DNA of 64,000 bases. Source: Candidatus Latescibacterota bacterium. Its GTDB lineage: Bacteria; Latescibacterota; UBA2968; UBA8231. The notes under the pieces were generated by a model that ran no database searches, had not been told where the DNA came from, and saw nothing but the letters and a program-made list of their open reading frames with translations. Shown piece after piece: positions 24,214-35,323 of the stretch; position 1 is the first letter of the stretch, and every line of letters begins with the position of its first letter. The stretch spans positions 1-64,000 of the forward strand of contig JAJEFJ010000054.1 in assembly GCA_022820485.1 (NCBI GenBank), in the 5' to 3' direction. The translations under genes were made by a program, and so were the position numbers.

Positions 24214-26169
24214 ATGGACTTGCCCCAAAAGCCTACCTTGCAAACCGAGCCGGTCTTTAGCGCCAAAGCGCTGGTGGCGGGCACCCTAGGGTCGCTGTGC
24301 ATCGCCGTGGGAGCACCGTACGGCAACATGGTCATCCGCGGCTCCTACATGTCGATTGATTTCAGCGCCGCGGGTGCCCTGTTCCTTTTCTTTTTGTTGA
24401 CGGGCTTGTTCAACGCCTTGCTGACGCGCTTTGCCGTTTCTGTGGCCCTCGGACGCTGCGAGCTCATCGTCGCGTACATTATGATGCTCACGGCTTCGGC
24501 CATCCCCACGATGGGCCTCAGTGAGTACTGGCTGACGATCATCACCGGCGCCCAGTACTACGCCACCCCGGAAAACGAGTGGGCCTTGCTCATCCTGCCG
24601 CACCTTCCCGAGTGGATCGCACCGCAGGATCCCGAGGCGATCAAGTGGTTTTACGAAGGAGCACCGCGCACCACTGGGGTACCCTGGGCTGCCTGGAGCG
24701 GCCCGCTGTGCTATTGGGCCATTCTCATTGTAGCCCTGTATTTGGTGATGATCTCGTCTATGGTCATTATGCGCCGCCAGTGGGTAGAGCGGGAGCGGCT
24801 AGTTTATCCGCTGGTGCAAGTGCCCTTGGCCATGGTGCAGAGCGGAGGCCGCGGAGAAGCCCTAGGTCCTTTCTTCAAAAATCCAATCATGTGGGTCGGC
24901 TTTGCCCTGCCCGTGCTCGTCAGTAGCCTCAACGCCCTACACGCGTACTTCAACTTCATCCCCGCCATCCAGCTCGTCTCTTCGATTCCGATCCTGCGCA
25001 ACACCGTCAGCCTGATCTTCCGCCTGAGCTTTCCCATGATCGGATTTGCCTATCTGATCAACCTCGACATCGCCTTCAGTCTGTGGTTTTTCAACACCAT
25101 CGCCAAGCTGATCCGAGGGGGGCTGGGAGTTTTAGGGGTTGGCAGCACCGAAAAGCTCGTTTACGGCGCTGCTAGCGAGCCGATCCTCGCCCATCAGGGA
25201 CAGGGCGCGATGATAGTCCTAGTGTTTTTCGGCCTGTGGGTCGGCCGCGAGCACCTGCGCGATGTGCTGCGCAAAGCATTCCGCGGCGACGACCGCATCG
25301 ACGACCGCGGCGAGATGCTCTCCTATCGGGCAGCGGTCTTAACTTGGCTCTCCGGCGTCGCAGTAATGACCATCTGGCTGTGGCAGTCTGGCTTGCCGCT
25401 GTGGGCGGCCTTTTTGACCGTGATGCTGGCCATCCTTATCTTCGTCGGCCTAACTCGAGTGGTAGTAGAAGGAGGTGTGGCCGCGGCGGTCGGACCGATG
25501 ATTTCTCCAACGGTCTTGGTCTCGGCTGTTGGCTCTTCGGCGATCGGCCCGGCCGGTATGGTCGGCCTCGCGTACACCTTCGTGTGGGCGGCTGATATCC
25601 GCACCTTTGTCATGGCTTCCTGCGCACACGGCCTCAAGTTGGGCGAGGGACTAGGGCCGCAGCTACGCCCGCTTTTTTGGTACATACTGCTGGCGATTGT
25701 CGTTAGCATCGTCGGCTCGGTCGCAGCGATTTTGTACCTCGCCTACGAATACGGCGGCATCAACCTCAACCCGTGGTTTTTTGGAGGTGGAACTCGCGCC
25801 CCTTTTGATTATATTACCACCAAGTTAAGTGCGCCCACCGAGCCGAATATCGATGGCTGGATTCACACTTTTGTCGGCGGGGGCATCATGGCCCTGCTCA
25901 TGTGGGCGCGCCAGCGGCTCTTGTGGTGGCCTCTGCATCCCATCGGTTACCCGATTGGTGCCGTATGGCTGATGGACCAGTTGTGGTTTAGCATTGCCAT
26001 CGCTTGGCTCTTAAAGTTGTTGGCGATGAAATACGGCGGCCCCAGTCTTTTTCGCCGGGCGCGTCCTTTCTTTTTAGGCCTAATCATAGGCCAGTTTTTC
26101 ATCGCGGGGCTCTGGTTGATTATCGACTTTTTCACGGGCATGACCGACAATGTGGTCTTCTGGATCTGA
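24214..26169 (+). CDS. Large polytopic membrane protein, OPT-like (DUF6785/DUF6784-type)
   Basis: 651 aa, about 14 hydrophobic segments; ends VWLMDQLWFSIAIAWLLKLLAMKYGGPSLFRRARPFFLGLIIGQFF. Confidence 0.7.
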   Translation: MDLPQKPTLQTEPVFSAKALVAGTLGSLCIAVGAPYGNMVIRGSYMSIDFSAAGALFLFFLLTGLFNALLTRFAVSVALGRCELIVAYIMMLTASAIPTMGLSEYWLTIITGAQYYATPENEWALLILPHLPEWIAPQDPEAIKWFYEGAPRTTGVPWAAWSGPLCYWAILIVALYLVMISSMVIMRRQWVERERLVYPLVQVPLAMVQSGGRGEALGPFFKNPIMWVGFALPVLVSSLNALHAYFNFIPAIQLVSSIPILRNTVSLIFRLSFPMIGFAYLINLDIAFSLWFFNTIAKLIRGGLGVLGVGSTEKLVYGAASEPILAHQGQGAMIVLVFFGLWVGREHLRDVLRKAFRGDDRIDDRGEMLSYRAAVLTWLSGVAVMTIWLWQSGLPLWAAFLTVMLAILIFVGLTRVVVEGGVAAAVGPMISPTVLVSAVGSSAIGPAGMVGLAYTFVWAADIRTFVMASCAHGLKLGEGLGPQLRPLFWYILLAIVVSIVGSVAAILYLAYEYGGINLNPWFFGGGTRAPFDYITTKLSAPTEPNIDGWIHTFVGGGIMALLMWARQRLLWWPLHPIGYPIGAVWLMDQLWFSIAIAWLLKLLAMKYGGPSLFRRARPFFLGLIIGQFFIAGLWLIIDFFTGMTDNVVFWI

Positions 26170-26183
26170 GAAAGGCACCAACT

Positions 26184-34369: not shown

Positions 34370-34742
34370 GTCCCTGCGCTGGGAAAACAACGACAACGGC
34401 GAGGTTCAGGTCTCAATAAAGCGCCAAGAGACCTGGAGGGTGCGGCTGCTGTCCAAATTTTTCTACATCCCCAGACAGCGCAAGATCACCCTCGACGAAG
34501 TTGGCAGCGAGGTCTGGCGGATGTGCAACGGTCGCAACTCGGTCGGCCGGATGATCGAAGAGCTCAGCGACAAATACCAGCTCAATCGCAAAGAGGCCGA
34601 GGTCTCCCTGCTCCAGTATTTGAAGACCCTTGGGCAGAAGCGCTTCATCGGCTTTGTGTTAGAAAACGATGAGAGGCCGCCCGGTCGCGGCGTGGCCAGC
34701 GGAAAAAAATGGCAAAAAAAACAAACAGGGGCGAGCAATTAG
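34293..34742 (+). CDS. PqqD-like (RRE-type) protein
   Basis: RKITLDEVGSEVWRMCNGRNSVGRMIEELSDKYQLNRKEAEVSLLQYLKTLGQKRFI matches the PqqD winged-helix pattern. Confidence 0.75.
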   Translation: MGILSKNKGPKLSRAAMLASRPTRNESLRWENNDNGEVQVSIKRQETWRVRLLSKFFYIPRQRKITLDEVGSEVWRMCNGRNSVGRMIEELSDKYQLNRKEAEVSLLQYLKTLGQKRFIGFVLENDERPPGRGVASGKKWQKKQTGASN

Positions 34743-35323
34743 CTCGTCCCTGTTTTCGTCTCCACCCAGTCGCACACTTTTTCTCCCACTTGCTCAATCC
34801 CGCACTGTTGGCGCTGTTAATCTTCGGCGTCCAAGCCCACGTGCTGGGCGACTGGCTCGCCGGCTCGGTGGCGATCGGCATCTTCTCCTTGGTACCCGGA
34901 TTGTTACTCTGGCACTTCGTGCGCTCGGGGTATCTCGACAAAGCCTATACAGACGACCGCAACAAGCGCGCTACCCTGCTATTGCTGGGCGCTCTTTGCT
35001 ACGCCTTGGGGAGTGCAGCCCTCTACGGGATCGGCGCTCCGCCCCTGATGCTGGTCACGGCCGCGTCCTGTGTCGTCAACACGCTCTTGGTCTGGTGGAT
35101 CAATCGCTTCTATAAGATCAGTATTCACGCGGCTGGTGTCGGGGGGGCAACCTGTGTATTGTTGATCAGCGTTGGCAGCGCGGCGTGGCCCTTCTTGCTC
35201 AGTTGGCCGACCGTCGCTTGGGCGCGGCTTTACTTGCGGGCGCATACTCCCATGCAGGTCGGCGCGGGCGGCACGCTGGGCGCGGGGAGTATGGCCCTGC
35301 TGTACCGTGCTTTCATCTGGTGA
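34709..35323 (+). CDS. PAP2-like membrane phosphatase family protein
   Basis: Multiple TM segments; YKISIHAAGVGG and ARLYLRAHTPMQVGAGGTLG resemble PAP2 motifs; start codon uncertain. Confidence 0.65.
   Translation: MAKKTNRGEQLARPCFRLHPVAHFFSHLLNPALLALLIFGVQAHVLGDWLAGSVAIGIFSLVPGLLLWHFVRSGYLDKAYTDDRNKRATLLLLGALCYALGSAALYGIGAPPLMLVTAASCVVNTLLVWWINRFYKISIHAAGVGGATCVLLISVGSAAWPFLLSWPTVAWARLYLRAHTPMQVGAGGTLGAGSMALLYRAFIW
34723..34756 (+). terminator. Terminator-like hairpin overlapping the PqqD-like stop codon
   Basis: A-tract then AAACAGGG-G-CGAGC-AATTA-GCTCG-T-CCCTGTTTT. Confidence 0.6.

What the first reader, a model, noticed from the sequence alone, without database searches (positions are those of the whole stretch)
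24214..35323. Candidate undescribed membrane system: OPT-like / pseudo-peptidase-FtsX / OPT-like / unknown / PqqD-like / PAP2-like cluster
Six same-strand genes with tiny gaps or overlaps. Two very large OPT-like membrane proteins flank a 1583-aa protein that joins an M28-like extracellular domain to an FtsX-type permease. They are followed by a 330-aa unknown, a stand-alone PqqD-like winged helix and a PAP2-like membrane protein. OPT proteins are known for oligopeptide or metal-chelate transport, FtsX permeases for mechanotransmission or lipoprotein/substrate release, and PqqD domains for binding peptide leaders. A combined peptide or glycopeptide uptake, processing or export role is an inference. 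No ABC ATPase is visible next to the permease.
Basis: partly seen in the sequence, partly recalled or inferred. Interest (0 to 1): 0.82.

Follow-up and report, generated by a model that had tools for sequence, protein, structure and literature searches.

The report
Giant pseudo-peptidase ABC membrane system

Summary
The six same-strand genes are real. A (DUF6785/DUF6784), B (1583 aa: inactive M28 fold, MacB core, FtsX permease), C (808 aa, distantly OPT-like), D (330 aa) and E (PqqD-like) form a conserved cluster; F travels with the recD2 gene and is not part of it. The missing ABC engine was found: in other families and phyla B and C stand next to a ~230-aa minimal FtsX half-permease and a LolD/MacB-type ATPase, with D and E in several. 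In this genome that pair lies on another contig (G000:C60). The minimal FtsX was found in all 24 B-bearing genomes tested from other records (23 strongly, one a fragment at a contig end); C, D and it are absent together from one family. Linkage recurs in four separate clades of the B tree. Seven B paralogues share one D, one E and one such engine in this genome. Best reading: a type VII ABC (MacB/LolCDE/FtsEX-like) machine whose periplasmic pseudo-aminopeptidase handles a peptide-like ligand together with OPT-like partners. Architecture and genetic association are well supported; substrate, direction and physical assembly are inferred. New variant of a known kind; no description was found in the open-access papers searched.

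The parts
24214..26169 (+). A: 651-aa polytopic membrane protein, DUF6785 + DUF6784, distantly related to C; a variable member
   Evidence: 412 and 109 bits; ~10 hydrophobic segments; next to B in genera g1 and g5 of the family and in f2-f5, f9 and some Armatimonadota, absent next to B in g3, g4, g6, g7
26184..30935 (+). B: 1583-aa fusion: signal-like N-terminus, periplasmic pseudo-M28 aminopeptidase and beta region, 3 extra TM segments, type VII (MacB/LolC/FtsX) permease, C-terminal cytosolic domain
26253..28799 (+). B residues 24-872: extracytoplasmic pseudo-peptidase plus beta region; AF2 mean pLDDT 89; nearest solved folds are M28 aminopeptidases 2ek8 and 6hc6
26883..27137 (+). M28 core of B with lost metal ligands: AYYDAMSVVPALAPGAEQASG and ATSAHHLG in place of the usual AHYD / DNASG / EE motifs
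29193..29753 (+). MacB_PCD periplasmic core of B
30099..30434 (+). FtsX domain of B with the segment SVYERFREIGIYSSVGL, which aligns with SVTERTKEIGVRMAIGA of MacB (ATPase-coupling region)
30949..33375 (+). C: 808-aa polytopic membrane protein, distant OPT-superfamily relative; commonest neighbour of B
33377..34369 (+). D: 330-aa protein with no hydrophobic segment, two tandem PsbP/Mog1/DcrB-like domains predicted; single copy
34341..34742 (+). E: stand-alone PqqD-like winged-helix protein with conserved RPxRN and KEAEV motifs; only PqqD-domain hit in the genome
34709..35323 (+). F: PAP2-like membrane protein; judged NOT part of the system (linked to recD2, seen only in the window's family)

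Best explanation
The cluster encodes the substrate-handling half of a type VII (MacB/LolCDE/FtsEX-like) ABC machine of the cell envelope. Shown from sequence: B is one half-permease carrying a large extracytoplasmic inactive aminopeptidase; a minimal FtsX half-permease with almost no periplasmic part and a LolD/MacB-like ATPase, encoded at G000:C60:89941-91434, are the engine that is operonic with B and C in relatives; C and often A are OPT-like membrane proteins; D and E have no hydrophobic segment and are expected in the cytoplasm. Inferred: two ATPases drive a heterodimer of B and the minimal FtsX; the stroke is transmitted to the periplasmic domain of B, whose dead peptidase cleft holds a peptide-containing ligand and passes it to or from the OPT-like protein C; E (a fold that binds peptide leaders in known cases) and D work on the cytoplasmic side on the ligand or on assembly; several B and A/C modules share one engine, as different S-components share one motor in ECF transporters.
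For: (1) Operons: f5/f9 A-TPR-B-C-D-E-miniFtsX-ATPase; Desantisbacteria L211 B-C-D-E-mini-ATPase; L205 TPR-B-C-D-E-mini-ATPase; L209 B-C-mini-ATPase; Armatimonadota/Zipacnadia mini-ATPase-B-C and L227 B-C-D-E-mini-ATPase. (2) E beside mini-ATPase also where B is elsewhere (L282, L276, L266). (3) The own genome holds orthologues of the pair on C60 (58% and 77% identical to f5); minimal FtsX found in 24 of 24 B-bearing genomes from other records, and absent together with C and D in family f6. (4) These linkages occur in four separate clades of the B tree. (5) B keeps the ATPase-coupling segment of MacB; the hydrophobicity profile puts the M28 part outside. (6) Ordinary FtsX permeases of this genome (C57, C76, C81, C84) have ATPases beside them, the six other B paralogues do not. 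(7) Dead-site motif conserved across paralogues; fold confirmed. (8) Copy numbers: 7 B loci versus one minimal FtsX, one D and one PqqD hit in G000.
Against: No physical interaction was tested. In this genome the engine is not linked to B. Many B loci elsewhere lack C or the engine nearby (17 of 61 with enough downstream sequence lack C). D and E are absent from several B-bearing genomes, Omnitrophota-like ones above all, so they are accessory. A second ATPase paralogue (52-59% identical) exists and lies 9-20 kb from, or next to, A-B-C in f3/f4, so the engine may differ between B subfamilies. OPT membership of C is weak. Substrate and direction are unknown.
Confidence: 0.55

Rival explanations
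1. A LolCDE- or YbbAP-like extraction machine: the complex pulls lipoproteins, lipopeptides or lipids out of the inner membrane, B holding them with its periplasmic domain, while A and C are flippase-like or scaffold partners rather than peptide carriers.
For: The ATPase is closest to LolD, MacB and YbbA models; known type VII systems often do extraction, and YbbAP pairs such a permease with a periplasmic hydrolase (PMC12646458).
Against: No M28-type hydrolysis can remain in B; the OPT-like partner has no counterpart in Lol or Ybb systems; all scores are below the LolD, LolC/E and MacB equivalog cut-offs.
Confidence: 0.25
2. A RiPP-type peptide system: E recognises a leader peptide, and B/C with the engine export and trim it.
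For: E is a PqqD-like fold; an ABC engine and a peptidase-like domain are present.
Against: Gaps in the cluster are at most 14 bases, leaving no precursor gene; Pfam scans of the flanking ORFs examined gave no radical SAM enzyme; E is single-copy and conserved across phyla, unlike RiPP cassettes; E is under the PQQ and lasso PqqD cut-offs; the peptidase is dead.
Confidence: 0.08
3. Unrelated envelope genes that happen to be neighbours: an OPT-type nutrient carrier pair, an orphan FtsX protein and two housekeeping genes.
For: In f3-f4 A-B-C and D-E are far apart; D-E there sit near lexA and respiratory genes.
Against: The same partners recur with different B subfamilies and in several phyla in changing orders; co-absence in f6.
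Confidence: 0.06

Closest known systems
MacB / MacAB-TolC
   Same: FtsX-type permease with MacB_PCD periplasmic core, coupling segment, ATPase of the same class
   Different: Separate ATPase, giant pseudo-peptidase on the permease, minimal second half-permease, OPT-like and PqqD-like partners; NF007826 cut-off not reached
LolCDE (lipoprotein release)
   Same: Separate LolD-like ATPase and two different FtsX permeases per complex (heterodimer inferred here)
   Different: One half has almost no periplasmic domain, the other has ~850 extra extracytoplasmic residues; TIGR02211/TIGR02212 cut-offs not reached
YbbAP-TesA (PMC12646458)
   Same: Type VII ABC permease teamed with a periplasmic hydrolase-fold partner
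   Different: Here the hydrolase-fold part is fused, is of M28 and not TesA type, and has lost its catalytic residues
OPT (oligopeptide transporter) superfamily, PF03169/TIGR00728
   Same: C and some relatives show weak OPT matches; large polytopic proteins
   Different: C itself is below cut-off; found with an ABC engine, whereas OPT carriers are known as proton-coupled secondary carriers (own knowledge)
M28 aminopeptidases (2ek8, 6hc6), transferrin receptor, nicalin
   Same: Same fold; transferrin receptor and nicalin are likewise non-catalytic M28-fold proteins (own knowledge for their function)
   Different: Fused to an ABC permease; distinct conserved YYDAMSVVPALAPGAE motif
PqqD / RiPP recognition element
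   Same: PF05402 match, single winged-helix domain
   Different: No radical SAM or precursor context seen; linked to an ABC engine
ECF transporters, group II
   Same: Many substrate modules apparently share one engine per genome
   Different: Different folds; sharing rests here on copy numbers only

Membership tests
Type VII ABC (MacB/LolCDE/FtsEX) | FtsX-type permease with ATPase-coupling segment | tested here: met
   PF02687 56.8 bits in B, 66.9 in the minimal FtsX; alignments to MacB
Type VII ABC (MacB/LolCDE/FtsEX) | Extracytoplasmic domain between the first and second permease TM | tested here: met
   MacB_PCD in B, 31.4 bits over cut-off 27; the minimal FtsX lacks it
Type VII ABC (MacB/LolCDE/FtsEX) | ATPase of the LolD/MacB/FtsE class linked to the permease | tested here: met
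   Best NCBIfam matches LolD, MacB, YbbA, FtsE; adjacent to B/C in relatives, unlinked in this genome
Type VII ABC (MacB/LolCDE/FtsEX) | Mechanotransmission driven by ATP | not testable with these tools
   needs structures or assays
LolCDE | LolD and LolC/E equivalog cut-offs | tested here: not met
   LolD 227 versus 308 bits; LolC/E 52 versus 362
MacB | MacB equivalog (ATPase-permease fusion) | tested here: not met
   35 versus 966 bits, no fused ATPase
M28 peptidase | M28 fold | tested here: met
   Pfam 38.9 bits; AF2 model to 2ek8 E 1.8e-21
M28 peptidase | Metal-binding and catalytic residues | tested here: not met
   H to Y and EE to HH or similar in nearly all B proteins; two divergent paralogues keep the first His only
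OPT superfamily | Curated OPT model match for C | tested here: inconclusive
   C none in Pfam, TIGR00728 19.4 versus 128 bits; 4 of 29 relatives hit PF03169, best E 2.7e-5
DUF6785/DUF6784 | Model match for A | tested here: met
   412 and 109 bits
PqqD (PF05402) | Domain match for E | tested here: met
   42.2 versus 23.4 bits
PQQ or lasso-peptide PqqD | Equivalog cut-off and radical SAM/precursor context | tested here: not met
   29.4 versus 46 and 30.6 versus 80 bits; no such gene in the flanking ORFs scanned
PsbP/Mog1/DcrB-like fold (D) | Fold similarity | tested here: met
   AF2 pLDDT 87; TplEi E 3.5e-6, PsbP 2.3e-4 (TM 0.55-0.61 by target), Eag chaperones 3e-3; no family-model match by sequence
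ECF-like shared engine | Several substrate modules per single engine | tested here: inconclusive
   7 B loci, 1 minimal FtsX, 1 E, 1 D in G000; also 7 B in single-contig G004 and G007; physical sharing not tested

The most novel reading that the evidence does not exclude
An ATP-driven OPT system: a type VII ABC engine, shared by several giant pseudo-peptidase receptors, loads or powers OPT-like carriers, so that peptide-like substrates caught by a dead aminopeptidase are moved across the inner membrane. This would be a new class of active transporter with a shared motor.
Probability: 0.25. Interest if true: 0.88.

Novelty: new variant of a known kind. Interest (0 to 1): 0.7.

Why it matters
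Type VII ABC machines are classified by their partners. This one joins three things not known together: an inactive aminopeptidase fused to the permease, OPT-like membrane proteins, and a PqqD-like protein. It is widespread in uncultured phyla (530 confirmed places in the species-level genome collection), mostly recorded as hypothetical proteins, and it gives a concrete, testable subunit list. If the OPT part is really ATP-driven, it adds a new way to energise a carrier family.

Tried and rejected
F as a member: rejected, it goes with recD2 and was seen only in the window's family. The ABC protein at 40443-42734 as partner: rejected, it is a fused ABC_membrane exporter. B as an active peptidase: rejected. 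RiPP cassette: no room for a precursor. Simple vertical inheritance of one operon as the only reason for linkage: weakened by the B tree, though an old operon with later replacement of B is not excluded. Paper searches found no description; the library lacks most subscription journals, so this is weak evidence of novelty.

Full report
What is there. The window is contig C105 of a 6.26-Mb draft genome; names of the closest hits place it in Latescibacterota, many of them filed as Gemmatimonadetes. The six ORFs are as described, tightly packed, with recD2 following F. Upstream lie a NusG_II protein and a heptaprenyl-diphosphate-synthase-component-I-like membrane protein, then a divergent RelA/SpoT gene.

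The proteins. A matches DUF6785 and DUF6784. B holds M28, MacB_PCD and FtsX domains. C has no Pfam match; a weak OPT superfamily match is supported by four relatives that hit PF03169. A and C share a partial profile match (E 7e-7 over 190 columns). In B the M28 metal motifs are replaced by the conserved YYDAMSVVPALAPGAE and SAHH segments, so catalysis of the M28 type is very unlikely, while strong conservation argues for a kept binding role (inference). AF2 gives a confident model (pLDDT 89) whose nearest solved folds are M28 aminopeptidases, then transferrin receptor and glutamate carboxypeptidase. Seven hydrophobic segments fit an outside M28 region, three extra TM segments, then the four-TM type VII permease with its periplasmic core between segments 4 and 5, and a cytosolic C-terminus (topology inferred). 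D is modelled well (pLDDT 87) as two PsbP/Mog1-like domains; Foldseek gives TplEi, PsbP, Mog1 and, more weakly, Eag chaperones. E is a PqqD-domain protein.

The missing motor. In Latescibacterota families f5 and f9 the order is A - TPR protein - B - C - D - E - a ~228-aa FtsX protein - a ~250-aa ATPase. The FtsX protein has the C-terminal FtsX domain but almost no periplasmic part; the ATPase is nearest to LolD/MacB/YbbA models but under every equivalog cut-off listed. In the window's own genome, orthologues of both stand side by side on contig C60 (89941-90639 and 90664-91434).

Breadth. A scan of one genome per species gave 530 places encoding a relative of B; the best 78 loci were fetched. 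Among 61 loci with at least 3 kb downstream, 44 have C next to B. Beyond Latescibacterota, B-C lies with the engine in Desantisbacteria, Armatimonadota, Zipacnadia and unnamed lineages, with D and E in three of these loci (L205, L211, L227). Omnitrophota-like loci have TPR-B-C, with the minimal-FtsX/ATPase pair elsewhere. All 24 B-bearing genomes tested from these records have the minimal FtsX, 23 strongly and one as a fragment at a contig end; 16 have D. E also sits directly beside the engine where B is elsewhere (L282, L276, L266). Inside the phylum, family f6 lacks C, D and a strong minimal-FtsX match together; that is one clade, so one event. The B tree places the linked loci in four different B clades (Armatimonadota/Zipacnadia; L205/L209/L211; f5/f9; the window's family, there with D-E only).

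Copies. G000 has seven B loci, one minimal FtsX, one D and one PqqD hit; two single-contig genomes of the genus also have seven B loci with one PqqD hit and one minimal FtsX each. The other six B loci of G000 have no related ATPase beside them, whereas the ordinary FtsX permeases examined (C57, C76, C81, C84) do. This suggests a shared engine. A second ATPase paralogue (52-59%) near A-B-C in f3/f4 is a caution.

How it works. Shown: gene association, domains, dead site, coupling segment, copy numbers. Inferred: a heterodimer of B and the minimal FtsX on two ATPases; a stroke passed to the periplasmic pseudo-aminopeptidase; hand-over of a peptide-like ligand to or from the OPT-like protein; cytosolic roles of D and E. 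Direction is open; I lean to uptake or loading because OPT relatives import peptides and because multiplied modules with one motor resemble nutrient systems (established knowledge and inference). An extraction role like LolCDE or YbbAP-TesA (PMC12646458) is the main rival.

Compared with the known. It works like, and by the sequence features tested belongs to, the type VII ABC superfamily; it is not LolCDE or MacB by curated cut-offs. It is not an active M28 peptidase. OPT membership of C is inconclusive. E is in the PqqD domain family but under the cut-offs of the PQQ and lasso groups. Searches of the open-access library found no paper on DUF6785/DUF6784 and none joining M28 or PqqD with FtsX; the WS3/Latescibacteria genome paper (PMC4454575) mentions neither OPT nor FtsX.

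Limits. All related genomes are MAGs or drafts except a few single-contig ones; ORFs were called mechanically; the best 78 loci favour close relatives, so percentages describe that set only; no interaction, expression or substrate data exist here.

Noticed in passing
window 23269-24182 (+): A NusG_II protein followed by a heptaprenyl-diphosphate-synthase-component-I-like (Gx transporter) membrane protein sits directly upstream of A; the second gene is conserved in front of the cluster across the family, so it may be co-transcribed.
   Followed up: partly
G000:C31:4099-4815 (L272); L273:6424-7200; L274:714-1424; L279:2346-3101: A second, 52-59% identical LolD-like ATPase paralogue; in f4 it is immediately upstream of A-B-C and in f3 9-20 kb away, with no minimal FtsX seen beside it.
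   Followed up: partly
L119:2502-3251, L120:15611-16318, L122:587-1285, L205:9315-9881: A TPR protein with a hydrophobic N-terminus (C-terminal TM segment in some) stands directly before B in f5, f9 and Omnitrophota-like loci; no counterpart next to B in the window.
   Followed up: partly
L071:9330-15593 (G000:C23): A B paralogue of about 2088 aa, some 600 residues longer than the other B proteins after the part that aligns with B.
   Followed up: no
alignment A4 (29 C relatives): One member of the C family carries a PDZ domain; the C93 paralogue (L036, about 1075 aa) has a ~230-aa insert after residue 705 and is the likely one.
   Followed up: no
L042:15651-17577 (G006): Gene A appears broken into several frames in this relative while B-C-D-E are intact.
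   Followed up: no
window 59032-62478 (+): 1148-aa protein combining a CAAX-protease (Rce1-like) domain with a YcdB/YcdC DUF4901 repeat domain.
   Followed up: no
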